Below, piece by piece: positions 30,547-44,776 of a DNA stretch of 64,000 nt. This DNA comes from Pararhodobacter zhoushanensis (GTDB lineage Bacteria > Pseudomonadota > Alphaproteobacteria > Rhodobacterales > Rhodobacteraceae). The position numbers and the translations under genes were made by a program. The stretch spans positions 1-64,000 of the forward strand of contig NZ_REEZ01000007.1 of NCBI RefSeq assembly GCF_003990445.1, given 5' to 3'. The notes beneath the pieces were generated by a model. The model made no database searches. It had not been told where the DNA came from and worked only from the letters and a program-made list of their open reading frames with translations. Within the stretch, counting starts at the first letter, position 1; each line of letters opens with the position of its first letter.

Positions 30547-30892
30547 GCACCGACAGTCGCGGCGCCGCCGTTTAGACGTCCCGACCAGGTGAGCGCTGGG
30601 TCTCCGGGTGACACTATCTCGGCGCAGTTGGCGTGCGTGTGGCTTTCCTTTCGGTGCCAAAAAGCTGGACGAGAGAATACCGCAGTAGGCAGGATAGTCT
30701 CAGGGGGGGCAACGGTTTAGATGCCCGACCTCCTGTACTCGGCATAGGGATGCAAGCAGTCGTTCCTGAGAGCGAGGGGACAGGCCCGGTATCCCCCTAT
30801 GAGCGCTTGATCTGCGCGCCCTGATGCGCCGCGCGATCTCTTGCCGGCCATGGCACTTCCTGCCCGTATGGCTTTCCTGTACGATTGTCATC
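30547..30892. other. Intergenic stretch, no gene seen
   Basis: The 346 bases between the TetR and IclR genes contain a few unsupported frames only. No strong hairpin or repeat was found. It presumably holds the IclR promoter. Confidence 0.45.
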
Positions 30893-31657
30893 ATGGAGCC
30901 CGCCCAGCAAAAGACGGTCCGCTCGGTCGAGCGCATCTTGCAGATCCTCGAATTGATGAACCGTGCGCCGGTGGTGCGCGTGCAGCACCTCGCGCAGGAG
31001 ACAGGTCTCCCCGCGCCGACGGTCGTGCGCCTGCTGGAGACGCTCATGAGCGCGGGATACGTGCGCAAGATCGGGCGGCAGGCCGGGTACTGCGTGACCG
31101 AGAAGGTCGCGGCGCTCGGGGCGGGGCATCACGGGTTGCCTCAGGTTTTCGACGTGGCGCGTGAGTCGGCAGAAGCGCTGACCCGCCGCACGCTCTGGCC
31201 GACGGCGCTGGCGACGCTGGACGTGGATGCGCTGGTGATCCGCTTCAGCACCATTCCCATGAGCCCGTTGTCGCATTACCAGTCGACGATCAACCGCCGG
31301 ATGACGCTGCTGGATTATGCCCACGGACGCGCCTACCTCGGTTTCTGTCCCAAGGAAGAACGCACGCATCTCGTGGCGTTGCTCCAGCAATCCGCGGCAA
31401 CCCCGGCGGAGGCGGAGGCCATAGCGCAGCGCGCGGACTCGGTCGTGGCGCTCACCCGGGCCAGCGGCTTTGGCGAGCGCACCGGTAATATTCAGCCCGA
31501 AACACATTCCATAGCCGCACCGCTGCGGCTGGGGGCCAAGCTGGTCGGCACGCTGGGGATCACCTATTTCGCGCGCACCCATGTCGACGTGGCCGCGCTG
31601 AAGACCGAATTGCGCGCTGCCGCAGAGGCCTGCGAAAGGGGCGAGACCTACGTGTGA
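30893..31657 (+). CDS. IclR-family regulator (MhpR-like)
   Basis: The 254-residue protein has an N-terminal winged helix (residues about 8-65; HLAQETGLPAPTVVRLLETL) and a C-terminal IclR effector domain. I start it at the ATG before EPAQQKTVRSVERILQILEL because the family N-terminus aligns there; no clear ribosome-binding site is present. MhpR-like regulators control aromatic catabolic genes, and a catabolic operon lies 3 kb away. Its stop overlaps the end of the reductase gene on the other strand by 10 bases. Confidence 0.85.
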   Translation: MEPAQQKTVRSVERILQILELMNRAPVVRVQHLAQETGLPAPTVVRLLETLMSAGYVRKIGRQAGYCVTEKVAALGAGHHGLPQVFDVARESAEALTRRTLWPTALATLDVDALVIRFSTIPMSPLSHYQSTINRRMTLLDYAHGRAYLGFCPKEERTHLVALLQQSAATPAEAEAIAQRADSVVALTRASGFGERTGNIQPETHSIAAPLRLGAKLVGTLGITYFARTHVDVAALKTELRAAAEACERGETYV

Positions 31658-32250
31658 GCGGCTGCATCCTCGGGGTAGACGGTGCGCGCTCGGTCGTCGT
31701 CCTTTCCGGACGCGATGAGGCGCGGTTCGGCGTGCCGGAGATGGTGCAGATAAGCTTGCGCAGAGGCCGCGATCGCCGCGTCATCGCATTCGCGCGCGCC
31801 GGTTAGTGTAAAGGGCGGCAGATAGTGCATGCCGGTATGGACGGCCATCAGTTCGAAAGGCACGGCGACCTCGTCGAGCGTCCGACCGTATCGGCCGTCT
31901 GGCTGGTAGTCGCGGCCGTTTGACCCGGTAGAGAACGCGATGCCCAGCGTCTTGAGCCGCAGCGCTCGCCCACCGGGACCATAGGCCCAGCCGCGTTTCA
32001 TGATCTCGATCTGCCAGAACGATAGCAACGGCGGGCAGGAATACCAAGTCAGGGGAAATTGCAGCACGATGCGGTCGTGATCGGCCACCAGTTGCCGCTC
32101 TGCCTCTCCGTCGATCTGCCCATCGGGGTAGCGCGCGTAGAGGTCGTGCAAGGTGATGTCGCCTGCGGCGCGGATGGCATCGGCCCAACAGCGGCTGATG
32201 CGGCTGCAGCCCATGTCGGGGTGGGCGAGAATGACGAGCGTTCGGGTCAT
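31648..32250 (-). CDS. Flavodoxin-fold NAD(P)H:quinone oxidoreductase (KefF/MdaB-like)
   Basis: The 200-residue protein has the flavodoxin-like start TLVILAHPD, the VLQFPLTWYSCPPLL segment that shapes the flavin site, and the TLGIAFSTGSNGRDY loop typical of the NQO1/KefF group. It carries FMN or FAD and reduces quinones by two electrons. The ATG follows GGAGACC. Next to aromatic catabolism genes it may detoxify quinones formed from catechols. Confidence 0.88.
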   Translation of the reverse strand: MTRTLVILAHPDMGCSRISRCWADAIRAAGDITLHDLYARYPDGQIDGEAERQLVADHDRIVLQFPLTWYSCPPLLSFWQIEIMKRGWAYGPGGRALRLKTLGIAFSTGSNGRDYQPDGRYGRTLDEVAVPFELMAVHTGMHYLPPFTLTGARECDDAAIAASAQAYLHHLRHAEPRLIASGKDDDRARTVYPEDAAAHT

Positions 32251-32407: not shown

Positions 32408-33316
32408 ATGTTCGATGACAGCGATCCGCGCAAGGCACTCACGTCCATGTCGAAAGAGCGCCGTTTCTCCGGGCCTTTCTGCGCCCCCGAAGTGGGCCAT
32501 TTCAGCCAGGAGCCGCCGCAGCAGACGGGGGAGGGCTGGCAGGCATGGATGATGCGCTGCACCAACCTCGTGGTGCGGCTGGTCCGACTGGAGGGCGCCG
32601 CCACCTTTGCCCGTGCTGGGCAGATGGACGAGTACATGGTGTTTTCGACCGATGCCGAAGTCCGTTTCGACATCGAGACCGCGGCGGGCGCAGTTACCGA
32701 CCATCCGGGCAATCACCTGTTTGTCGTCCCGCCGGGAGACAGCACCGTGACGATCCGTGGCACGGGGCAGGTGAGCTTTCTCTTCACCACGCGCTCTGCC
32801 GATCTTGTGGCGCAATGCGCCAACCCGAAGATCCCGGCCAATCCGAATATTCCGCCTTTCCAGCAATGGCCCGATCCGGTCGGCGGCTTTCGCCTGCGCG
32901 CCTATGACCTTGACGTGCCGGAGCAGGACGGCCGCTTTGGCCGCATCTTCCGCTGTACGACGATGATGGTGAACGTGCTGCCGCGTTTTACCGCGCCGCG
33001 CGATGCCTCGAAGGTCTCGCCGCATTACCACGCCAGCTTCGAGCAGGTCAGCCTGACGCTGGAAGGGGATTTCGAGCATTTCCTGCGTTGGCCCTGGACG
33101 TCTGACATGGCGGACTGGCTGCCGGACATGCACGTCCGTTGCGCCAGCCCTTCGGTTGCCGTGCTGCCGCCACCCGCGATCCACACGACGTTGTGGACCT
33201 CGGAGGCGACGCAGATCGTCGACATCTTCTCGCCGCCGCGCATGGATTTCTCGACAAAGAACGGATGGGTGCTGAACGCCGCCGATTACCCGTTGGCGCA
33301 GACCGAGATCGAGTGA
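32408..33316 (+). CDS. Bicupin-like protein, hypothetical
   Basis: The 302-residue protein appears to hold two cupin barrels. The first is near 60-130 (EYMVFSTDAEVRFDIETAAG, NHLFVVPPGD) and the second near 185-265 (SPHYHASFEQVSLTLEGDF, with H207, H209 and E212 plausible as metal ligands). No named enzyme is recognised. It stops 2 bases before the convergent TetR gene and faces away from the reductase gene, so it probably belongs to the same catabolic regulon. Confidence 0.7.
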   Translation: MFDDSDPRKALTSMSKERRFSGPFCAPEVGHFSQEPPQQTGEGWQAWMMRCTNLVVRLVRLEGAATFARAGQMDEYMVFSTDAEVRFDIETAAGAVTDHPGNHLFVVPPGDSTVTIRGTGQVSFLFTTRSADLVAQCANPKIPANPNIPPFQQWPDPVGGFRLRAYDLDVPEQDGRFGRIFRCTTMMVNVLPRFTAPRDASKVSPHYHASFEQVSLTLEGDFEHFLRWPWTSDMADWLPDMHVRCASPSVAVLPPPAIHTTLWTSEATQIVDIFSPPRMDFSTKNGWVLNAADYPLAQTEIE

Positions 33317-33318
33317 CC

Positions 33319-34062
33319 CTAATCCGCGATGTCACCAAGCGCGGGCATCGAAGCGATGACGATGGTGTCATGCGCGATTGGCGGCAGGGTGGGCAGGGGC
33401 CGGCGTGACAGGTCGCGCGCCGCGGCCTGAGACATTCCGAAGGCCATCAGAATGTGTTCGGATATCTGCTCGGGGTAGTCGCCGGGGGTCGTGCCGCTGG
33501 TGATCGACACCATGGCCGCTGCGACCGCACCCATGAGGATGTCGCGACCGATCTCTGCCGTGGGAATGTGGAACAGTCCTTCGTCCACGCCGCGCCGGAT
33601 CGTCACCAGCGAATTGTGCCAGACCATCTCGCCAAAGGTATGCCCCGGTGCGCTGGAATGGATCATCGCCCAACCCCACGCGGGGTTCTTTTCCGCCGCA
33701 TGCAGATAATAGCGGATGGCGACAGCGCTTTGTTCGGCGGCATTTTCCAGCGCGCCGAACATGTGATGCACAGCGCGGTCGAATTCCCCGGTCATTTCTT
33801 CAAGCAGCTGGTAGCGCAGCGCTTCGAGATCGTCGAAGTGGTTGTAGAAGGTGCCCCGCGCAACGCCCGCCGCCTTGCAGATGTCCTCGATCCGGACACT
33901 GCGTCCGTCCGCACGCCCGTAGCAGTCGAAGGCTGCGGTGAGAATCGTGTTGCGCGACTTGGCCCGACGCGCGGCGCCAATCTCGGCACGGCGGTGGTTC
34001 TGCGCAGTGCGATACCCCAAGCGGACAATGACGTCGTCGGCGTTCCCGGTATTTTCTGGCAT
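33319..34062 (-). CDS. TetR-family regulator of the catabolic operon
   Basis: The 247-residue protein starts MPENTGNADDVIVRL; the open frame upstream has no homology. The helix-turn-helix (IEDICKAAGVARGTFYNHF) is at about 55-75. It is divergent from the extradiol dioxygenase operon across about 445 bases and so is the likely repressor, with an aromatic substrate or CoA ester as inducer. Confidence 0.88.
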   Translation of the reverse strand: MPENTGNADDVIVRLGYRTAQNHRRAEIGAARRAKSRNTILTAAFDCYGRADGRSVRIEDICKAAGVARGTFYNHFDDLEALRYQLLEEMTGEFDRAVHHMFGALENAAEQSAVAIRYYLHAAEKNPAWGWAMIHSSAPGHTFGEMVWHNSLVTIRRGVDEGLFHIPTAEIGRDILMGAVAAAMVSITSGTTPGDYPEQISEHILMAFGMSQAAARDLSRRPLPTLPPIAHDTIVIASMPALGDIAD

Positions 34063-34507: not shown

Positions 34508-35422
34508 ATGGGGATTAACCGTATCGACCACGCCGCCATCAGGGTCGGCGATCTCGGCCGCGCGCTTGCCTGGTACGAGGACGTGCTGGGCCTGACCGTG
34601 CTGTCGCGTGACGCCGAAACCGTCCACCTGGCGTGCCGCGGCAAGGCCGCAGACATTACGTTGGTCAAGGGCACGCAATCGCTGGAAAACTTCACATTTG
34701 GCGTCGACGACCAAGAGGATCTCGACCGGGTCGAGAGCATCCTGAAAAAGGAAGGCGTGGCGGCCGAGCGTCTGAGCGGCGACAGCCGTCCGGGCGAGGG
34801 CGCGACGCTGAAATTCCACCTGCCGTCGGGCCACGAGCTGCGGCTTTGCACCGGCGGGGCCGAACGCCGCGCAGGCATTTCGGACTTCGATGCCAAAGGC
34901 TCGCACATTCCGACCGACATGGACCACATCAACCTTCTGGGCGAAGTCGATCCGGCGGTGATGCGCGACTTTCTGATGATGATCGGCTTCAAGTCGTCCC
35001 TGAACATTTCCGTGGGCGGGCAACTGGCAGGCATCTGGCTGCGCGGCTCGGCCTTTGACCATGACATCGCTTACATGCAGGCGACGCGCCCGTCAGATCG
35101 TCTCCACCACGTCGCCTTTGCCGTAGAAGACGGCAACCATTACTTCCGCCTGTCCGACCGCCTGCTGGAAAGCGGCCATCGCTGGGAATTCGGCCCGGGA
35201 CGGCACAATGCGGGTCTGGGCAAATCCACCGGCTTCGGCACCAACAACTACGCTTATGCCTTCGACCCCTTCGGCAACCGCAATGAGTTCTCGTCGGGGA
35301 TGGAGCAATTCGCCGACGACGCGACCCCGCTCGACGTGAACATCGCACCCGAGCAACTGACGGACGTGATGAACGGCTGGGGCTACGAGATGGCCGAGAC
35401 CTTCATGACGGTGGGATCGTGA
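34508..35422 (+). CDS. Extradiol (type I) ring-cleavage dioxygenase, HsaC/BphC-like
   Basis: The 304-residue two-domain glyoxalase-fold protein has iron ligands H140 (DMDHINL), H201 (RLHHVAF) and E260 (NRNEF) in the C-terminal half, with the conserved tyrosine in NNYAYAFDPFG and a catalytic-type His at 200. Such enzymes open catechol rings next to the diol with O2 (meta cleavage). The N-terminal half (RIDHAAIRVGDLGRALAWYE) is the non-catalytic repeat. It is the first gene of an eight-gene operon. Confidence 0.93.
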   Translation: MGINRIDHAAIRVGDLGRALAWYEDVLGLTVLSRDAETVHLACRGKAADITLVKGTQSLENFTFGVDDQEDLDRVESILKKEGVAAERLSGDSRPGEGATLKFHLPSGHELRLCTGGAERRAGISDFDAKGSHIPTDMDHINLLGEVDPAVMRDFLMMIGFKSSLNISVGGQLAGIWLRGSAFDHDIAYMQATRPSDRLHHVAFAVEDGNHYFRLSDRLLESGHRWEFGPGRHNAGLGKSTGFGTNNYAYAFDPFGNRNEFSSGMEQFADDATPLDVNIAPEQLTDVMNGWGYEMAETFMTVGS

Positions 35423-35889
35423 GCCTGTCGGCTGAAACCTTCCTGGCGGCGCAGGACCTTGTCCTGCGCTTCTGGGCGGTGGTGGACGAGGTGGACGACA
35501 CGCCCGGCGCGGCTCTGTTCACCCCCGAAGGCGCGCTGGTGATCGAAAGCTTTCGCGCCGAGGGCACGGCAGAGCTGTCCCGCTACTTCGCCGCCCGCCG
35601 CACCCTGTCTGCCGAACGGCAACGCAGCACCCGGCATCTGTGTACCAACCTTCGGGTGCTGCCCGGCGAGGGCATACGGCTCGCGGCGACGGTAACGGTG
35701 TTCTCCGGCACGGGGTCACGCCCCTTGCCACTGGAGGCGCCGTCCTCTCTGGCGGACTTCACTTTCGATTGCCTAAAGACGCCGGACGGCTGGCGGTTTC
35801 GCGAAGTTCGCGGGAAGCTGGTGTTTGCCGGGGCCGACACGCCCGACCTGACGAAAGCCGCGCAGGCAGCCAAGGGAGCCCCGGCATGA
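35419..35889 (+). CDS. NTF2/SnoaL-like protein
   Basis: The 156-residue protein starts at a GTG overlapping the dioxygenase stop (GTGA). It has the cone-shaped NTF2 pattern: a starting helix (FLAAQDLVLRFWAVVD), ALFTPEGALVIESF and a C-terminal sheet (GWRFREVRGKLVF). Proteins of this fold act as isomerases, hydratases or small subunits of aromatic oxygenases. In this operon it could supply the isomerase/hydratase step that otherwise seems missing; that is an inference. Confidence 0.75.
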   Translation: MSLSAETFLAAQDLVLRFWAVVDEVDDTPGAALFTPEGALVIESFRAEGTAELSRYFAARRTLSAERQRSTRHLCTNLRVLPGEGIRLAATVTVFSGTGSRPLPLEAPSSLADFTFDCLKTPDGWRFREVRGKLVFAGADTPDLTKAAQAAKGAPA

Positions 35890-36560
35890 AGCGGGTCGCA
35901 CTTGTCCACGGCTGGGGCGGCTCCTACGCCGCGACATGGCAGGCCGATGGTTGGGACGACGCGCTGCGCGACGCGGGGTTCGAGCCGGTCGGCGTCGACA
36001 TCGCGGGGCATGGTCCGCAGGGCGGTCCGCATGATCCGCAGGCCTATGCCGATCTTGCCAGCGATCTTGCCGCGAAACTGCCCGCCGGGTTGCACGGCGC
36101 CATCGGGTTTTCGCTGGGGACCAAGCTGCTGTTGGAACTGGAGGCACGCAATCCCGGCGCGAACGGCAGGCTGGTGCTGGGCGGGATCGGCGACAACCTC
36201 TTTGCCCCCGAAGCCGCCGGTCCGGCCCTTGTCGCGGCCCTGCGTGGTGAGGCGACGGACCATGCGCCGCAGGTCGCAGCCCTTCTGGCTTACGCGGCCA
36301 AAAGCGGATCGGACCCCGCCTGTCTGGCCGCCGTGCTGGAGCGACCCGCGAACCCGGTCCTCACGGCGGAACGCCTCGCCGCCGCAACGGCGTCGATCCT
36401 GATTTTCAACAGCCGCGCCGATGCCGTGGCGCAGCCCGATGCGCGGCTCGTCTCGGCCCTGACAGGCGCCACGCATCAACTGATCGATGGCCCCGGCCAT
36501 GTCGGCCTGACAGCCGACGACCGCTTTCGTGACGCGGCCATCGCATTCCTGACTGATTGA
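35886..36560 (+). CDS. Alpha/beta hydrolase, probable meta-cleavage product hydrolase
   Basis: This 224-residue hydrolase has the oxyanion motif VHGWGG, nucleophile elbow GFSLG (Ser76), acid Asp179 and His205 (GPGHVGL). It is shorter than the usual 270-290 residues of HsaD/BphD, with a small lid. The ATG overlaps the upstream stop (ATGA). In context it should cut the C-C bond of the ring-opened product to release an acid and a dienoate. Confidence 0.85.
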   Translation: MKRVALVHGWGGSYAATWQADGWDDALRDAGFEPVGVDIAGHGPQGGPHDPQAYADLASDLAAKLPAGLHGAIGFSLGTKLLLELEARNPGANGRLVLGGIGDNLFAPEAAGPALVAALRGEATDHAPQVAALLAYAAKSGSDPACLAAVLERPANPVLTAERLAAATASILIFNSRADAVAQPDARLVSALTGATHQLIDGPGHVGLTADDRFRDAAIAFLTD

Positions 36561-36583
36561 ACCGCATAGGGAGGAGAAGACCC

Positions 36584-38355
<1,772 letters not shown>

Positions 38356-38399
38356 GCCCCGGCTTTCGCCGTCTTCGAAAAACTCAGCGAGGAGACCTT

Positions 38400-38648
38400 G
38401 TGACGGTGACCTACACCCTTGGCGACGCAGCGGTCGCGCTGACCGTGGCCGCCGAACCAGCCCAATCCATCGACGGGGGGGCGGCGGATTACACAATCCT
38501 GCCAGGCGGCACGACGCCGGGGATGCTGTACGCGAAGCAACAGTCATGGGGCACGTTGCGGCTGAACGGCGCGACCAAGATCCAAGCCCTGTATGGCAAG
38601 GATTTCAACGTCGAACGCGGCTTTGAATGCGATGTGAAGGTGTTCTGA
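38400..38648 (+). CDS. Unrecognised 82-residue protein in the catabolic operon
   Basis: The GTG at 38400 follows GAGGAGACCTT. The product (VTVTYTLGDAAVALTVAAEP start; GKDFNVERGFECDVKVF end) is a small, probably all-beta protein with one cysteine and no signal or membrane segment. I know no family for it. Its tight placement between the reductase and BKACE genes suggests a subunit, chaperone or small isomerase for the pathway. Confidence 0.65.
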   Translation: MTVTYTLGDAAVALTVAAEPAQSIDGGAADYTILPGGTTPGMLYAKQQSWGTLRLNGATKIQALYGKDFNVERGFECDVKVF

Positions 38649-38701
38649 AACCGTCCAAGACCCGGAGGCGATCCGGGCTGACCCAAACCAAAGGATTCCC
38701 C

Positions 38702-39637
38702 GTGCCTCGGACTTCGAAAAAGACCATCATTTCCTGCGCCGTGACCGGCTCCATCCACACGCCGTCCATGTCCCCTCACCTGCCGGTGACCGCCGATCAG
38801 ATCGCCGAAAGCGCCATCGCCGCCGCCGAGGCCGGGGCCGCCGTGTTGCACCTGCACGCGCGCATGCCGAAAACGGGCGCGCCGAGCCAGGATCCTGCGC
38901 ATTATGCCGCCTTCCTGCCGCGCATCCACGCGGCCACGGATGCCATCGTGAACATCACCACCGGCGGCGGGTTGGGCATGTCGATGGAGGCCCGCATCGC
39001 CCCTGCGCTGCAGGCCGCACCAGAGCTGGCCTCGCTCAACATGGGGTCGTTCAACTTCAACATCGCGGCGGCGGAAAAGAGCTGCCGCGATCCACAGCCG
39101 TGGGAGATCGACTACCTGCGCGGCACCCGCGACCTCATCATGTCCAACACCTTCACCCAGATCGAGACGGTTCTGGCCAAACTGTCCGAAACGGGCACCC
39201 GTTTCGAGTTCGAATGCTACGATACGGGCCACCTTTATAACCTAGCGCTTTTCGCGGACCGGGGTCTGGTGAAGCCGCCGTTCTTCGTGCAGGCGATCTT
39301 TGGTATCACCGGGGCGCAGGGCCCCGACCCCGAAAACCTCATGCACATGCGCGCCACGGCAGAGCGGCTTTTCGGCGACGATCACCTGCTGTCGGTGCTG
39401 GGCGCAGGCCGGTCGCAGTTCCCTTTGGTCACCATGGGGGCGATCCTTGGCGGGCATGTCCGCGTCGGGCTGGAGGACAATCTCTATATCGCCAAGGGTC
39501 AGCTCGCGCAGAGCAATGCGCAGATGGTCACCAAGATCCGGCGTATCCTTGAGGATCTGGGCCACGAAATCGCCACCCCGGACGAGGCGCGCGCGATGCT
39601 CGGGACCAAGGGCCGGGACAAGGTGTCTTTCGGATGA
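38702..39637 (+). CDS. BKACE-family beta-keto acid cleavage enzyme (DUF849)
   Basis: This protein of about 311 residues starts at a GTG and opens KKTIISCAVTGSIHTPSMS. Zinc ligands H50 and H52 are in VLHLHAR, and the ECYDTGHL and GAGRSQFPLVTMG segments fit the TIM-barrel active site. BKACE enzymes condense a beta-keto acid with acetyl-CoA to give acetoacetate and a new acyl-CoA. This suggests that the operon makes a beta-keto acid. It overlaps the aldolase gene downstream (ATGA). Confidence 0.9.
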   Translation: MPRTSKKTIISCAVTGSIHTPSMSPHLPVTADQIAESAIAAAEAGAAVLHLHARMPKTGAPSQDPAHYAAFLPRIHAATDAIVNITTGGGLGMSMEARIAPALQAAPELASLNMGSFNFNIAAAEKSCRDPQPWEIDYLRGTRDLIMSNTFTQIETVLAKLSETGTRFEFECYDTGHLYNLALFADRGLVKPPFFVQAIFGITGAQGPDPENLMHMRATAERLFGDDHLLSVLGAGRSQFPLVTMGAILGGHVRVGLEDNLYIAKGQLAQSNAQMVTKIRRILEDLGHEIATPDEARAMLGTKGRDKVSFG

Positions 39638-40377
39638 GGGCCGGATTTCGCGCCCGCCTGCGCGCGCCCGAGCCGGTGCTGGGCACCTTTCTCAAGATCC
39701 CCTCGACCCAGCCCGCCGAGATCCTCGGCTCTCTGGGCTTCGACTTTGTCGTCATCGACGAGGAACACGCGCCGCTGAACCCCGAGACGACCGATGCCAT
39801 CCTGCTGGCCTGCCGGGCGCACCGCATGGCGGGACTGGTGAGGGTACGTCAGCCCGGCGACATCCTGCGCGTGCTGGACAGCGGCGCCAATGGTGTGCTG
39901 GTGCCGCATGTGACTTCTGCCGCCGTCGCCCGCGAGATCGTCGCCCTTGCGCGGTATGCGGGTGGGCGTGGCCTCTCCCCCACCACCCGCGCCGGAGCGT
40001 TCGGTGGCATGCCCGTGGCGGACCACATGGCGGCGCAGGATGCACGAACTGCCGTCATCGCAATGATCGAAGACGCCGAAGCCTTGGACCGGATCGATCA
40101 GATCGTCGCGACCGAAGGACTCGACGCGATCTTCATCGGCCGCGCAGACCTTGGGGCAAGCATGGGCGCGGCAGCGCAAGATGGGGGGCTGGACCGCGCG
40201 GTCGCGGGTCTCTTGACCGCGGCGAAATCATCGGCTCTGCCCGCCCTCGTGCTTGCAGCCGACCGCACCGACGCCACCGCGATGCGCGATCTGGGGGCGA
40301 CCGGGTTTCTGACGGGGTCTGATCAAGGGTTCCTGAGGACTGCCGCAACCGCCGCACGCACCCGATTGTTCGAGTGA
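39634..40377 (+). CDS. HpcH/HpaI-family class II aldolase
   Basis: The 247-residue TIM-barrel protein has IDEEHAPLN (catalytic His45), AMIEDAEAL with the metal Glu, and IFIGRADLGASMG with the metal Asp. Such aldolases split 4-hydroxy-2-oxo acids to pyruvate and an aldehyde. It is the last gene of the operon and its start overlaps the BKACE stop. An aldehyde dehydrogenase partner is not nearby. Confidence 0.9.
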   Translation: MRAGFRARLRAPEPVLGTFLKIPSTQPAEILGSLGFDFVVIDEEHAPLNPETTDAILLACRAHRMAGLVRVRQPGDILRVLDSGANGVLVPHVTSAAVAREIVALARYAGGRGLSPTTRAGAFGGMPVADHMAAQDARTAVIAMIEDAEALDRIDQIVATEGLDAIFIGRADLGASMGAAAQDGGLDRAVAGLLTAAKSSALPALVLAADRTDATAMRDLGATGFLTGSDQGFLRTAATAARTRLFE

Positions 40378-40550: not shown

Positions 40551-40854
40551 TCAGCGGCGCGAGCGCAGGCGGCCCAGAATCTCATCCGCGTTTAACGGAA
40601 CGCCGGGCGCAGCACAGCGTTGCGACAGGACCACATCGCGATTGTCGAAGATGACGGTGCGAAACCCGGTGGCGGCGAAACCGTCGATCGGCGCCTGTGG
40701 CCAGTGCGCAATTCGGCTGCCTTGCCCGTGAATGAGAACCAAGGGCGTCGCAGATTTGGGGGCCGTGGTATTCAACCGCGATTGAGAGGCCGTTTGCCCG
40801 AATGATCTGGCTTCCATAAGGTTTTCCGTTCTTCAGCAAGGTCCGAATGTGCAT
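40551..40854 (-). pseudogene. Truncated alpha/beta hydrolase coupled to dabA
   Basis: The ATG at 40854 shares its A with the dabA stop (TGATG). The first frame reads MHIRTLLKNGKPYGS and RANGLSIAVEYHGP. A one-base shift near 40755 then gives LVLIHGQGSRIAHWPQAP and FRTVIFDNRDVVLSQR, the first strands of an alpha/beta hydrolase. The nucleophile region and everything after it is missing. It was once the third gene of the dab operon. Bases 40378-40550 hold nothing recognised. Confidence 0.75.
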
Positions 40855-43220
40855 CACGCCACGGCGTCAAGGCGTCCGGCATCTTTGCCACGAACAACCC
40901 AGCTTCCTTTTTTGTAGCGCTGAGCATACCCTTCACTGCCTTCCAGTGTCACAAGCGTCAGCCAGTCGTTGTCGAAAAGCGTCCGGACATCAGGCTTGCG
41001 TTCCAGAACGCGGTCGATCATCACGACGGGTGCCTCGATGGCGACGACGAGCCGGCTTGGCACATGGCGCTGTGCCGCACCGTCGTGCACGGATTGCCAC
41101 GGCAAGCCGACCCTGAGCGGACCGCCGTTGCCCTCGAGCACGCCGAACCCGCCGACGACGTTGTGCAACAGCTTGTTGCCCGCTCCGAACATCTCGGACG
41201 CGACCGTCGAGCCGTGATATTGCAGCGCGATCCAGCTTGCGACGACGACCGGGGCGCTCAGGATCAGTTCCAGCGTCCTTGCCCCCTCGTCCTGCCGCCA
41301 GTCGTAGTCATGGAGAAAGACTTGGCCATCGAGGTCGCGCCCGACTGTCCGGGTCCGTGGTGCGGCAATGAAACCACGGCATCCCGCAAGCCCCCATTCG
41401 GGCCGGACTTCGGACCAGTCGCGTCCCCGCCGCGCCAGCGATTCAGCCGATCCGCGCGGCAGCGTTTGCGCACGTTCTGTGCGGGTCAGCGCGCCGGCCA
41501 TCGACAGCGCGGCACGAAGACGATCGACATCAGCCCGGTGGCTCGCGGGCACCGCGTCGGCAAACAACTGAACGCTATCAGCGACCGTGTCGTGCAGTCC
41601 GGCAACGAAAAGCGTCTCAGCAGGGATCGTCACACCGCGGCTTTTGAGAGCGCCGCGCACAGCCTTGTCGTTCAGGAGCGCCGCTAGAAGGCGCGCGTTG
41701 ACGTCGCCGGCGAACCCGCCACAGGCCCCGCATTGCAGCGCGCTGGCTTGGGGCGCATTGGCGACTTTTGCGCCGTGTCCACAGACCAGCACGAGTGGGG
41801 CAAAGCCCTCTGTCAGCGACATTGCCCGCAAAGTGCTGTACGCAAACGCCGTGCGTTCGTCGAGAGACAGGTCGAGCTCCGGGGCTGGATCGTCTGACGA
41901 GGAGAAGGCAAGGCCGAGGCCGTCCTGGACGAGCTTGCCGACATAAAGCGGCCCTGCGGCCTCGACGAAAGCGAAGGCCGAGACAGCCGCTCGTTTGAAG
42001 CGTCCCCAGGCCCGAACAGTCCGCAGCCGGACCCGCGTGCGTGTCTCCGCCTGAGCATCTCCCGGTGAATGGGTCGGGATTCCAGGGGCCAGCAAAACCG
42101 GGCAGCGCGCTTCGTGCGTGTCCGAGGAAAAGGCTTTGTGGCGGATCGGAAGCCCGAAGAAACCCGCGAAGCCGATCGTACGGATCGTCGGATCGGATGC
42201 TTCCAGCGCGCGGCGCAGGCGTTCTGAGCGCACATCAATGCAAAACGCGGCCTGAATCGCGGGCGGGCCGGCTGGATGCGTGCCCGTCTCCCCGCAGAGC
42301 GACACGGCCAGACGGCGTTCCGCGCTCAGATCGACAGCGTCCTGAAGCGCGGCATCAAGCAGCATGTCCGGCGCAATCGGGATCGGCTGCGCACAGGCGG
42401 TCTTCACCCGCTCCCATGCCGCAAGCCGCGCCGCACCGCCTGCCTTCAGAAGGGCAACCTCCCAGACAAGGCGCAGGGTCAGCAACTCGAACAAACTGCT
42501 GTCGCGGGTCCCGTCGCGTTCGGCGGTCCAGCCGAAATGGCGGGCGTATTGCGCCCAGCCTGAAAGCGTCACAAGCAGCCGGTGGAAATAGAGCGGTGCG
42601 GCCTCGGCGGGCAGTTCAAGTGTCTGACAGGCATCCGCGAAGGCCGCGCGCGCGTCCGTCGGCATCGCCGCCACAAACGCAGCGAACCCGGGCAGGCCCG
42701 CAAGCCCCACGGTCAGGTCGCGGCTGGCATAGGCCCGCCACGCCGCCCAGACCCCGGTCTCGGGCGCGGGCCAGAACGCCTGCCCCCGGTCGAAATGCGC
42801 CGCCGCCCAATGACCGATGCGTTCCTCGACAAGGGCTGGCCAGTCGACGCCGTCGTTCTCGAACGCAATGTCGGCAAGCGTTGGCAGCCCCTGCTCAGTC
42901 GGTGATGCCGTCTTGCTTGCTTGGGCAAGGCGGTCCGCGTCGATACCTTTGGCCGCTGCGGCGTCGTTTAGATCCGCCGCGCTCACCTCGCCAGCCTTGA
43001 TCATCGCGGCCACCGTTTCGCGCGGCACAAACAGCCGGCCCGCACCGACGCGCGCCATGCGTGCGGCCGCTTCAAGGCGGCTCTCGCCCAGCTGGCCGAG
43101 CCAGGGATTAACCGCGACGGTCGCTTCGAGCGGAAAGGCAGGCGGGATCTGCCGCATGGCATCCTCGGCCGCGGCGAAGAGTTCGAGGGTGTGACCGGGC
43201 CAGGTCATGTACGCTTTCAT
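40854..43220 (-). CDS. dabA: Inorganic carbon accumulation protein DabA (DUF2309)
   Basis: The 788-residue protein shows the zinc site of DabA: C327 and D329 (FCIDVRSERLR), H482 (GHGAKVA) and C497 (LQCGACGG). The His-Cys spacing of 15 equals that of characterised DabA. This carbonic-anhydrase-like subunit turns CO2 into bicarbonate in the cytoplasm, driven by the ion gradient through DabB. It is somewhat shorter than the largest homologues. It overlaps dabB (43217-43220). Confidence 0.95.
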   Translation of the reverse strand: MKAYMTWPGHTLELFAAAEDAMRQIPPAFPLEATVAVNPWLGQLGESRLEAAARMARVGAGRLFVPRETVAAMIKAGEVSAADLNDAAAAKGIDADRLAQASKTASPTEQGLPTLADIAFENDGVDWPALVEERIGHWAAAHFDRGQAFWPAPETGVWAAWRAYASRDLTVGLAGLPGFAAFVAAMPTDARAAFADACQTLELPAEAAPLYFHRLLVTLSGWAQYARHFGWTAERDGTRDSSLFELLTLRLVWEVALLKAGGAARLAAWERVKTACAQPIPIAPDMLLDAALQDAVDLSAERRLAVSLCGETGTHPAGPPAIQAAFCIDVRSERLRRALEASDPTIRTIGFAGFFGLPIRHKAFSSDTHEARCPVLLAPGIPTHSPGDAQAETRTRVRLRTVRAWGRFKRAAVSAFAFVEAAGPLYVGKLVQDGLGLAFSSSDDPAPELDLSLDERTAFAYSTLRAMSLTEGFAPLVLVCGHGAKVANAPQASALQCGACGGFAGDVNARLLAALLNDKAVRGALKSRGVTIPAETLFVAGLHDTVADSVQLFADAVPASHRADVDRLRAALSMAGALTRTERAQTLPRGSAESLARRGRDWSEVRPEWGLAGCRGFIAAPRTRTVGRDLDGQVFLHDYDWRQDEGARTLELILSAPVVVASWIALQYHGSTVASEMFGAGNKLLHNVVGGFGVLEGNGGPLRVGLPWQSVHDGAAQRHVPSRLVVAIEAPVVMIDRVLERKPDVRTLFDNDWLTLVTLEGSEGYAQRYKKGSWVVRGKDAGRLDAVA

Positions 43221-44776
43221 TTTGTTGCTCCCTGTTTCGGGGTCCAGCGACCGGACAGCCGGTCCGAGATGGCGTTGAGGTAAAGGCCGTTCATCAAGTG
43301 GACCCGCAGTCCCGCCGCCGCCGGGTGCCCGGCCCAGAGCGGAAAGGTCGTCTGTGCCACCGCAGCAACCGCGAAGCTGGCTAGCGCAAGCACGATCGTC
43401 GCCCAGATCAGCCCGTCAGGTGGCGGGGGCGGTGGTAGCGTCCCTGCCGAGAGCCATGTCGCGGACTGCTGGAACGCAAAATAGGCCACCGTCGCGCCGA
43501 CCGACAACGTGATGGTGCGCCAGGTGAGCGCGCGCGGTGCCAGATCAGCAAGCCCTTGGGCGATCAGGTAGACGACGCCAAAGATCAGGATCGCACCCAG
43601 AGCGACAGTCTGCGGCGGCTTCGCGGTGATCCCGAAACCCAGCCCGACGATGACATAAAGCGCGAGCGCCAAGCCGAAGGCGCGCGTAACCGCAGCCAAG
43701 TTTGGCACTGCAACGGCTCCGGGGCGGCGGATAGACGCCACGTCCTTCACCGCGCCGCCCGAGGCAAGAAAGGCATGCGCCTTGTAGAGCGAATGGGCCA
43801 CTATATGCAGCAGCGCCAGCGGGAAAAGCGCGAGTCCGCATTGAAGCACCATGAAGCCCATTTGCGCGCAAGTGGACCAGGCGAGCGCCGTCTTTACAGC
43901 CGGTTGCGTCAAGGACACGGCGGCACCAAGAAGCGCACTGAACCCACCGATCAACGCCAGCACGGCAAGCACGCCCGGTACGCTGATGAGGACATCTGCA
44001 AAGCGGATCAGAAGAAACCCGCCCGCGTTGACCACTCCGGCATGCAAGAGTGCAGAAACGGGCGTCGGGGCTTCCATGACTTCGGTCAGCCACCCATGCG
44101 TCGGCAGGAGCGCAGACTTGATGACCGCAGCAAGCCCCAGAAACAGCGCGGCCAGCCACAGCCAGTTCGCCCCCTCGCCGACCCGTGCCGCCGCATTGAT
44201 TGTTGCAATGTCCGAAGTGCCGAAGCCCGCGACAAGGATGCCGCCCGCGATCAGCAGCGCCGCGGTTGCGACGATCCCGCTCACCGCCTTTTTGCGGGCG
44301 GCGCGACGTGCCCGTGGCCGGTCCGGGTAATGCACCAGCAACCGATGCAGCGTTACGCCCGTCGCGGCCCAGCCGACAGCAAGCTGGATGGCGTTCCCCG
44401 CGCTGACCAGAAGCAGAACGCAGGCAATTGTCGCCGCCATCCAGCCCATGAACGCGGGCTGCCGTGCGTCACCGTCGAGAGCCACACGGGAAAACCGCAG
44501 GACGATCCAGCCAACGAAGGCGACTGTCAGCGTCATCGCGACGCTGACGATGTCGGTGCGCGCCGAAAAGCCAATCGACGCTGCGCCCAGCAGCGGGCTG
44601 GTCGAGGCTCCCGTCAGCGCGAGACCTGCAGCGGCGACAATTCCAGCCGCCAACGCCCCGAGAGCCGCAAACTCGGGAAGCCGCAGTCGCCAGTGTGCCC
44701 GTGCGGGTGGCTTGAGACCTAGTGCAAGCGTAGCGGCGGCAAGGGCCGCTGGGGCAATCAGAAGCAAGAAACTCAT
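43217..44776 (-). CDS. dabB: DabB, NuoL/MrpA-like membrane subunit of the DAB carbon pump
   Basis: The 519-residue protein has about 13 membrane segments and the proton-channel signatures of the NuoL family (LLPTHGWLTEVMEAPTPVSA, LLHAGVVNAGGFLLIRF). It is next to and overlaps dabA, which separates it from true complex I subunits. It should pass protons or sodium ions inward to power DabA. It starts 90 bases from a divergent LysR regulator gene. Confidence 0.94.
   Translation of the reverse strand: MSFLLLIAPAALAAATLALGLKPPARAHWRLRLPEFAALGALAAGIVAAAGLALTGASTSPLLGAASIGFSARTDIVSVAMTLTVAFVGWIVLRFSRVALDGDARQPAFMGWMAATIACVLLLVSAGNAIQLAVGWAATGVTLHRLLVHYPDRPRARRAARKKAVSGIVATAALLIAGGILVAGFGTSDIATINAAARVGEGANWLWLAALFLGLAAVIKSALLPTHGWLTEVMEAPTPVSALLHAGVVNAGGFLLIRFADVLISVPGVLAVLALIGGFSALLGAAVSLTQPAVKTALAWSTCAQMGFMVLQCGLALFPLALLHIVAHSLYKAHAFLASGGAVKDVASIRRPGAVAVPNLAAVTRAFGLALALYVIVGLGFGITAKPPQTVALGAILIFGVVYLIAQGLADLAPRALTWRTITLSVGATVAYFAFQQSATWLSAGTLPPPPPPDGLIWATIVLALASFAVAAVAQTTFPLWAGHPAAAGLRVHLMNGLYLNAISDRLSGRWTPKQGATK

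What the first reader, a model, noticed from the sequence alone, without database searches (positions are those of the whole stretch)
34508..40377. Meta-cleavage operon ending in a beta-keto acid cleavage enzyme
The genes supply hydroxylation (two-component flavin monooxygenase), extradiol ring opening and C-C hydrolysis, as in HsaABCD, but the usual dienoate hydratase and acylating aldehyde dehydrogenase are not seen. A BKACE enzyme, an NTF2-like protein and an 82-residue unknown protein take their place. BKACE needs a beta-keto acid and acetyl-CoA, so the side-product acid may be a beta-keto acid, implying an aromatic substrate with a 3-carbon or longer oxidised side chain.
Basis: partly seen in the sequence, partly recalled or inferred. 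Interest (0 to 1): 0.78.

Follow-up and report, generated by a model that had tools for sequence, protein, structure and literature searches.

The report
Mobile ring-cleavage cassette making beta-keto acid
A twelve-gene package that moves between marine bacteria probably breaks open a phenol by an uncharted route ending in pyruvate plus a beta-keto acid; relatives in distant bacteria pair the same end-step genes with three kinds of enzyme that use up beta-keto acids.

Summary
The genes are real, but the picture changes. The 82-residue "unknown" is the in-frame deletion remnant of an outer-membrane protein (PF13557), intact in relatives. The operon ends in an HpcH/HpaI aldolase that overlaps BKACE. 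The unit is larger: a sharply bounded 12-gene cassette (about 30.8-40.4 kb) seen in nine carriers with unrelated flanks. The oxygenase resembles p-hydroxyphenylacetate hydroxylase but has Ile at the Arg263 place in 8 of 8 cassettes tested. A Rhodococcus homologue cluster (dioxygenase 60%, same dioxygenase-NTF2-hydrolase order) has the aldolase fused to acetoacetate-CoA ligase, with a thiolase nearby; two other loci have CoA-transferase genes; two actinomycete-class genomes carry cupin-aldolase-BKACE contiguously. So a beta-keto acid product is well supported, but BKACE is optional (two Sinirhodobacter carriers have none), and the acid probably comes from ring carbons rather than an oxidised side chain. 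Favoured mechanism (inferred): hydroxylation to an alkylpyrogallol-like ring, extradiol opening, lactone hydrolysis, hydration, retro-aldol to pyruvate plus R-CO-CH2-COOH. The substrate is unproven and nothing was assayed. New variant of a known kind.

The parts
30824..31657 (+). IclR-family regulator (start uncertain; 30878 also possible)
   Evidence: PF09339; NF007342, 408 bits, cut-off 251; first gene of the cassette
31648..32250 (-). Flavodoxin_2-type NAD(P)H oxidoreductase, likely quinone reductase (role inferred)
   Evidence: PF02525 128.9 bits; KefF model 167.5 bits, below its cut-off of 210
32408..33316 (+). Cupin-like protein with no Pfam, NCBIfam or PDB sequence match; proposed hydratase/lyase step
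   Evidence: H206, H208, H259 invariant in 27 distinct homologues, E212 in 93%; the name 'cupin' rests on a recalled motif
33319..34062 (-). TetR regulator, divergent from the catabolic operon
   Evidence: PF00440, PF21306
34508..35422 (+). Type I extradiol dioxygenase
   Evidence: PF00903; aligned with catechol 2,3-dioxygenase 3hpv; H140, H200, E260 invariant in 4 distinct loci including Rhodococcus (role as metal ligands recalled)
35419..35889 (+). SnoaL_4/NTF2-like protein, proposed tautomerase or hydratase
   Evidence: PF13577; homologue in the same place in Rhodococcus, 29% identical over 130 columns, E 3e-13 in a one-to-one comparison
35886..36560 (+). Alpha/beta hydrolase, proposed lactonase or C-C hydrolase
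   Evidence: PF12697; S76, D179, H205 invariant in 5 distinct loci
36584..37756 (+). Two-component flavin monooxygenase, oxygenase part (HPAH C2-like, R263 replaced by I231)
   Evidence: NF045920 695 bits, cut-off 650; 546 bits to 2jbr with alignment; I231 in 8 of 8
37763..37793 (+). Intergenic RNA hairpin between oxygenase and reductase genes
37834..38355 (+). Flavin reductase
   Evidence: PF01613 145 bits
38400..38648 (+). 82-aa in-frame deletion remnant of a PF13557 (Phenol_MetA_deg) protein
38702..39637 (+). BKACE, 3,5-dioxohexanoate-type model
   Evidence: PF05853, NF053538 over cut-off; PDB relatives 3e02, 3e49, 8rio/8rip
39634..40377 (+). HpcH/HpaI-family aldolase, last gene
   Evidence: PF03328; alignment to GarL; H45, R70, E146, D172 invariant in 25 distinct homologues (catalytic roles recalled)

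Best explanation
A horizontally moving 12-gene cassette for a neutral phenol. Shown by sequence: gene content, mobility, enzyme families, loss of the Arg263 site in the oxygenase, and association of the cupin/aldolase pair with beta-keto-acid consumers. Inferred chemistry: (1) the two-component oxygenase hydroxylates a 4-R-phenol or -catechol to a 5-R-pyrogallol-like ring, the flavodoxin-type reductase keeping quinones reduced; (2) the extradiol enzyme opens it to a 2-hydroxy-4-R-muconate, a diacid that can close to a 2-pyrone-6-carboxylate; (3) the hydrolase re-opens the lactone; (4) NTF2 and cupin proteins tautomerise and hydrate it to 4-hydroxy-4-R-2-oxoadipate; (5) the HpcH/HpaI aldolase releases pyruvate and R-CO-CH2-COOH, a ketone product, so no acylating aldehyde dehydrogenase is needed; (6) BKACE, with acetyl-CoA, turns this beta-keto acid into acetoacetate and R-CO-CoA. 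It would be the logic of the gallate/protocatechuate-4,5 lower pathway rebuilt from other enzymes, with an alkyl-like R instead of COOH.
For: Rhodococcus: dioxygenase (60%), NTF2, hydrolase in the same order, cupin 44%, the aldolase in one 923-aa protein with acetoacetate-CoA ligase (TIGR01217 813 bits, cut-off 521), a thiolase 1.3 kb further on, and a LigM/DesA-like protein close by; a second genome has the same fusion. Aldolase within 10 kb of the cupin in 25 of 27 loci; BKACE, ligase or CoA-transferase in 13 of 27. Controls: BKACE in 0 of 11 oxygenase-paralogue loci, and none outside the cassette in 10 flank stretches. Hydrolase (5 loci) and DUF6282 (20 loci) never occur together in the 27, as alternative lactonases would. 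R263 replaced by Ile in 8 of 8. P. denitrificans BKACE15, a close sequence relative (350 bits), accepts beta-ketopentanoate, beta-ketohexanoate and 3,5-dioxohexanoate (PMC11961710 passages). A. baumannii HPAH makes trihydric phenols (PMC10816480 passage); [quoted passage not shown]
Against: No enzyme was assayed and the ring substrate is not fixed by sequence. Cupin and NTF2 roles are guesses. 14 of 27 cupin loci show no beta-keto-acid consumer within reach, and 3 of the 10 BKACE matches are distant (33-39% identity: L095, L103, L107). The 11 control loci are mostly actinobacterial, where BKACE is rare (none in whole genome G780), so that control is weak. BKACE is absent from the whole genomes of two carriers, lost from one decaying cassette, and has a stop near its usual start in another. 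R. opacus 9 pairs NTF2, hydrolase, cupin and aldolase with a BphC-type enzyme over the biphenyl-2,3-diol cut-off, which suits a 3-substituted catechol rather than a pyrogallol. The hydrolase gives no clear family: the window's matches only BioH (21 bits); the two Rhodococcus homologues match PcaDC (53, 56 bits) above HsaD (30, 35), but PcaD alone scores 37 and 33, all far below cut-offs. The LigM/DesA-like neighbour is below its models' cut-offs, and the two Rhodococcus loci are 96% identical DNA, so they count once. The pyrogallol-to-pyrone paper used an intradiol enzyme.
Confidence: 0.36

Rival explanations
1. Flavonoid/chromone-like A-ring route, as in ifc/fde clusters: hydroxylation, extradiol opening beside a pyranone, aldolase removes pyruvate, hydrolase removes a C1 or acyl unit, cupin opens the remaining 4-hydroxy-2-pyrone to a 3,5-dioxo (beta-keto) acid, BKACE consumes it.
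For: Similar architecture: FAD monooxygenase, glyoxalase-type dioxygenase, alpha/beta hydrolase and cupins in ifc; cupin IfcD converts 2-hydroxy-5-(4-hydroxyphenyl)-4H-pyran-4-one to two C10 products (PMC11069340 sections 15, 16, 19 and passages; that this is ring opening with loss of CO2 is my reading). R. opacus 9 has an FAD monooxygenase, BphC-type enzyme, NTF2, hydrolase, cupin, aldolase. The BKACE model is for 3,5-dioxohexanoate.
Against: Homology of this cupin to IfcD could not be tested. In the paper, deletion of the hydrolase gene did not affect daidzein loss. Only 3 of 305 genomes of the order of G1612 (a betaproteobacterial MAG) carry this cupin family; the three loci were only partly annotated, and the one with a dioxygenase (L120) has a Rieske oxygenase.
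Confidence: 0.23
2. One reading: 3-(2-oxoalkyl)catechol; hydrolase releases a beta-keto acid from the side chain and a dienoate; NTF2 or cupin hydrates the dienoate; aldolase gives pyruvate and acetaldehyde.
For: Extradiol enzyme, hydrolase, aldolase and BKACE all present; BphC-type enzyme in R. opacus 9.
Against: No full acylating acetaldehyde dehydrogenase found in the genome; aldolase fused to acetoacetate-CoA ligase in Rhodococcus; cupin-aldolase-BKACE sets exist where no dioxygenase or homologous hydrolase was detected.
Confidence: 0.15
3. Orcinol-type route: a 2,3,5-trihydroxy ring opens to a 2,4,6-trioxo acid, which the hydrolase splits into pyruvate and a beta-keto acid.
For: Gives a beta-keto acid from ring carbons; trihydroxytoluene and 2,4,6-trioxoheptanoate appear in the fenitrothion pathway (PMC8571283 passages).
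Against: Leaves the conserved aldolase, cupin and NTF2 without a task.
Confidence: 0.1
4. BKACE is a passenger acting in unrelated acid metabolism; the cassette is an ordinary meta-pathway using host enzymes for the rest.
For: BKACE relatives on plasmids sit in varied contexts, no ring-cleavage gene annotated in the six; BKACE is dispensable.
Against: BKACE next to cupin in 10 of 27 loci, and possible substitutes in 3 more.
Confidence: 0.1

Closest known systems
HsaABCD (steroid ring A meta-cleavage)
   Same: Two-component oxygenase, extradiol enzyme, hydrolase
   Different: Oxygenase scores 695 bits to HPAH and 311 to HsaA; dioxygenase best model is catechol 2,3-dioxygenase; adds cupin, NTF2, BKACE
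p-Hydroxyphenylacetate hydroxylase C2 (A. baumannii, 2jbr)
   Same: Over NCBIfam cut-off; H120, S146, Y398 kept
   Different: R263 is Ile; the genome seems to have a separate homoprotocatechuate gene set
Aph alkylphenol meta-pathway (Rhodococcus; PMC6710988, passages)
   Same: Two-component hydroxylase plus extradiol enzyme for alkylphenols on a genomic island
   Different: Aph has a semialdehyde dehydrogenase and tautomerases and is deduced to give pyruvate and butyryl-CoA; no such dehydrogenase or tautomerase family matched here
Gallate/protocatechuate 4,5-cleavage lower pathway (Lig/Gal; recalled)
   Same: Proposed logic: ring to diacid, lactone opening, hydration, aldolase to pyruvate plus keto acid
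   Different: Different enzyme families (recalled); product would be a beta-keto acid, not oxaloacetate
ifc/fde flavonoid A-ring pathway (PMC11069340)
   Same: Monooxygenase, glyoxalase-type dioxygenase, alpha/beta hydrolase, cupin
   Different: Group A FMO instead of a two-component oxygenase; no BKACE or aldolase named in the sections read
BKACE15 / triacetate acetoacetate-lyase (PMC11961710, PMC10470551, passages)
   Same: Same BKACE family; BKACE15 close in sequence (350 bits)
   Different: TAL acts in anaerobic phloroglucinol degradation; BKACE15's role is stated as unknown

Membership tests
BKACE | PF05853 over cut-off; subfamily model NF053538 over cut-off | tested here: met
BKACE | Zn-dependent beta-keto acid:acetyl-CoA cleavage | not testable with these tools
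   needs assay
p-hydroxyphenylacetate 3-hydroxylase (C2 type) | NCBIfam equivalog cut-off | tested here: met
   NF045920 695 vs 650 bits
p-hydroxyphenylacetate 3-hydroxylase (C2 type) | Arg263, the site changed to accept tyramine (PMC10816480 passages; its role as carboxylate binder is recalled) | tested here: not met
   Ile231 in 8 of 8
HsaABCD | HsaA/HsaB models over cut-off | tested here: not met
   310.8 vs 450; 163.4 vs 230
HsaABCD | HsaC and HsaD models match | tested here: not met
   no HsaC or HsaD match for the window's dioxygenase and hydrolase at E 0.001
Classical meta-cleavage lower pathway | dienoate hydratase, aldolase, acylating aldehyde dehydrogenase | tested here: not met
   only an HpcH/HpaI aldolase in the operon; genome searches with TIGR03215 and TIGR03220 gave nothing over cut-off
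HpcH/HpaI pyruvate aldolase | family match and catalytic His/Arg/Glu/Asp | tested here: met
   (roles recalled); no equivalog model over cut-off
Gallate-like lower pathway | LigI/LigJ/LigK-type enzymes | not tested
   no such family search was run; claim is analogy only
ifc/fde pathway | cupin homologous to IfcD | not tested
   IfcD sequence was not found or fetched

The most novel reading that the evidence does not exclude
An unnamed, cross-phylum catabolic module: an unclassified cupin plus an HpcH/HpaI aldolase convert ring-fission products (or, with DUF6282, imported lactones) into pyruvate and a beta-keto acid, which is then taken up by interchangeable enzymes: BKACE, a fused acetoacetate-CoA ligase, or a CoA-transferase. 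The finding's cassette is its mobile aromatic version and gives this BKACE subfamily a physiological role.
Probability: 0.48. Interest if true: 0.75.

Novelty: new variant of a known kind. Interest (0 to 1): 0.6.

Why it matters
An extradiol ring opening followed by direct release of a beta-keto acid would be a lower meta-cleavage route that avoids semialdehydes and aldehydes. It would give a natural role to BKACEs of this kind, whose well-studied member BKACE15 is said to have an unknown role (PMC11961710 passage), suggest functions for an unnamed cupin family and for DUF6282, and bear on pyrogallol/2-pyrone-6-carboxylate, whose further catabolism is called unclear in work on syringol conversion (PMC6628648 passages). 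It also warns that NCBI's equivalog name for the oxygenase may mislead here.

Tried and rejected
Rejected: the 82-aa ORF as a new catalytic protein (deletion remnant). Rejected: cassette as the 4-hydroxyphenylacetate pathway (R263 lost; what look like homoprotocatechuate genes elsewhere). Rejected: BKACE context as a guide to substrate; of eight plasmid neighbourhoods fetched for BKACE out of 148 records, six show no annotated ring-cleavage gene, S. granuli has bphC beyond an IS6100 element, and the unannotated Variovorax one showed none of the cassette's other genes. Led nowhere: cupin and NTF2 against PDB sequences; papers on DUF6282 (none), propylsyringol/alkylpyrogallol (no bacterial pathway evident in the titles and abstract starts of the 30 of 95 listed), BKACE with triacetate (none), 3-keto-5-aminohexanoate cleavage with ring cleavage (none of the 15 of 313 listed holds the BKACE name). 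Class-wide dioxygenase search found only the own genome (1 of 385). The cupin structure job had not finished, so no fold comparison was made; the NTF2 job was never accepted. An early cupin translation was in a wrong frame and was replaced from then on.

The 27 cupin loci are not independent: window, L026 and L009 are one cassette type, L103/L104 one genome, L100/L101 one genome (so one CoA-transferase locus shares a genome with a BKACE locus), L109/L110 one genus. They span about 8-10 kb per side, L009 and L102 less on one side; detection needed over 80 bits (60 for NTF2). Of 27 plasmid records with the cupin, 12 were looked at. Leaving out the 3 cassette-type loci, BKACE is near the cupin in 8 of 24. 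Chance estimate by hand: 4 BKACE genes in 4.83 Mb gives about 0.017 per 20 kb.

Full report
What is there. Searches confirm the dioxygenase, SnoaL/NTF2 protein, alpha/beta hydrolase, two-component oxygenase and reductase, an 82-aa ORF, BKACE, and a terminal HpcH/HpaI aldolase that the finding's reason does not name. Dioxygenase/NTF2, NTF2/hydrolase and BKACE/aldolase overlap by four bases (coordinates), so co-transcription is likely, though no transcript data exist. The promoter scan found no sigma-70-like site (1.0 expected) and 7 terminator-like sites (5.6 expected).

The 82-aa protein. In S. pallidus (L005), GAI101 (L007), Sinirhodobacter (L009, L010), S. thiooxidans (L008) and P. pseudonitzschiae (L026) the same place holds a 287-290-aa protein; the three scanned match PF13557 (88.9-98.3 bits, cut-off 22). 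The window keeps the N-terminal part and a short C-terminal part in frame; its DNA on both sides aligns to T. alexandrii (L006) with about 600 bases missing between. It is a deletion remnant.

The true unit. Nine carriers were seen: window, S. pallidus, Tropicibacter alexandrii, GAI101, S. thiooxidans, two Sinirhodobacter, a P. pseudonitzschiae plasmid with insertion sequences on both sides, and the unnamed G051. The twelve genes from IclR to aldolase are all found in six (window with a porin remnant, S. pallidus with a stop near the BKACE start, T. alexandrii, GAI101, P. pseudonitzschiae, G051); Sinirhodobacter lack BKACE; S. thiooxidans lacks BKACE and aldolase and has a shortened flavodoxin-type reductase and cupin. 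Flanks of all nine (short for S. thiooxidans, S. hankyongi and the plasmid) share no gene order; only isolated matches of 28-45% appear. The dioxygenase is rare: E<=1e-60 in 4 of 394 family genomes including the own.

The oxygenase. It aligns end to end with A. baumannii HPAH C2 (2jbr, 546 bits). H120, S146 and Y398 are kept, but R263 is Ile231, in 8 of 8 cassettes tested (G051 not tested). R263 variants of the A. baumannii enzyme accept tyramine (PMC10816480 passages). A phenol without the carboxylate is therefore likely; the NCBI equivalog name should not be taken at face value.

BKACE is accessory. Both Sinirhodobacter genomes have no BKACE at all, S. thiooxidans lost the cassette copy (it has four elsewhere), and in S. 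pallidus the frame has a stop at the seventh codon of the usual start, leaving a 298-aa frame from a later GTG. It is present without such damage in the window, T. alexandrii, GAI101, P. pseudonitzschiae and G051.

Distant relatives. A Rhodococcus opacus plasmid (L027) has the dioxygenase (60%), an NTF2 homologue (29%) and the hydrolase (39%) in the same order, and divergently the cupin (44%) and a single 923-aa protein joining an HpaI-like aldolase (residues 10-251) to acetoacetate-CoA ligase (268-915; 813 bits, cut-off 521), with a thiolase further on. G1045 has the same fusion in DNA 96% identical over 20 kb, so the two count once. A LigM/DesA-like protein and folate genes lie beside it; its scores (254-267 bits) are below the models' cut-offs.

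The cupin/aldolase pair. The cupin has no Pfam, NCBIfam or PDB match. Homologues were found on 27 plasmid records, in 4 of 296 genomes of G1045's class, 9 of 299 phylum genomes and 3 of 305 genomes of the order of G1612. In 27 loci examined together an aldolase homologue lies within 10 kb in 25 (not L106, L108); BKACE in 10 (window, L026, L090, L095, L098, L099, L100, L103, L106, L107; three of them 33-39% identical), acetoacetate-CoA ligase in 1 (L027), CoA-transferase in 2 (L094, L101): 13 of 27. Not in that count are the three loci: L121, a 3-kb contig, has aldolase before cupin; L120 has the cupin beside a BphC-type dioxygenase with a Rieske/LigXa-type oxygenase, a reductase and an FAA hydrolase; in L119 no BKACE showed. 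In L099 and L100 cupin, aldolase and BKACE are adjacent. DUF6282 is in 20 of 27 and never together with the hydrolase, which is in 5. Controls: BKACE in 0 of 11 loci chosen for an oxygenase paralogue (weak, mostly actinobacterial), and none outside the cassette in ten flank stretches of five carriers.

Reading. Because cupin-aldolase-BKACE also occurs where no dioxygenase or homologous hydrolase was detected, and the aldolase is fused to acetoacetate-CoA ligase elsewhere, the beta-keto acid is most simply a product of these back-end steps. Retro-aldol of a 4-hydroxy-4-R-2-oxoadipate gives pyruvate plus R-CO-CH2-COOH; such a compound follows from opening and hydrating a 5-R-pyrogallol. This needs no acylating dehydrogenase, in line with the failure to find one. 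P. denitrificans BKACE15, a close relative, takes C5-C6 beta-keto acids. All of this chemistry is inference. The main rival is an ifc/fde-like route in which the cupin opens a hydroxypyrone (PMC11069340; outline, sections 15, 16, 19 and passages); both make the beta-keto acid from ring carbons.

Scores. Beta-keto acid as a product: about 0.75. The alkylpyrogallol mechanism as stated: 0.36. None of the listings shown by the paper searches (open-licence library, capped lists) names this cassette; most subscription journals are not in that library. Papers seen as passages only: PMC10470551, PMC11961710, PMC8571283, PMC10816480, PMC11303751, PMC6628648, PMC6710988.

Noticed in passing
window 37763-37793: Strong hairpin between oxygenase and flavin reductase genes (z -2.5); a stem forms there in the five relatives folded although the sequence differs (z -3.5 to +0.9). 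Possibly an mRNA processing or stability element.
   Followed up: partly
L090, L091, L092, L094, L103, L104, L109-L111: DUF6282-cupin-aldolase sets, many with IclR regulators and TRAP or tripartite transporter genes; perhaps a separate acid-uptake pathway with unknown substrate.
   Followed up: partly
L096 4304-10701: R. opacus 9 plasmid: MhpA-like FAD monooxygenase, flavin reductase, NTF2, hydrolase, BphC-type dioxygenase, cupin, aldolase; may be an actinobacterial relative of flavonoid A-ring clusters.
   Followed up: partly
L120 7382-14303: Genome of the order of G1612: Rieske/LigXa-type oxygenase and reductase with cupin, BphC-type dioxygenase and FAA hydrolase.
   Followed up: partly
L098: Sphingopyxis granuli RW412 plasmid has two BKACE genes, two HPAH-like oxygenases and a P450 around a cupin-aldolase pair.
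   Followed up: no
window 40854-44776: Large minus-strand pair next to the cassette (788 and 519 aa) with no match in the compared flanks; not annotated with a tool here.
   Followed up: no
G1045:C2 both ends: A 36-kb perfect inverted repeat at the two ends of a 7.8-Mb contig carries the Rhodococcus version, so it is duplicated.
   Followed up: no
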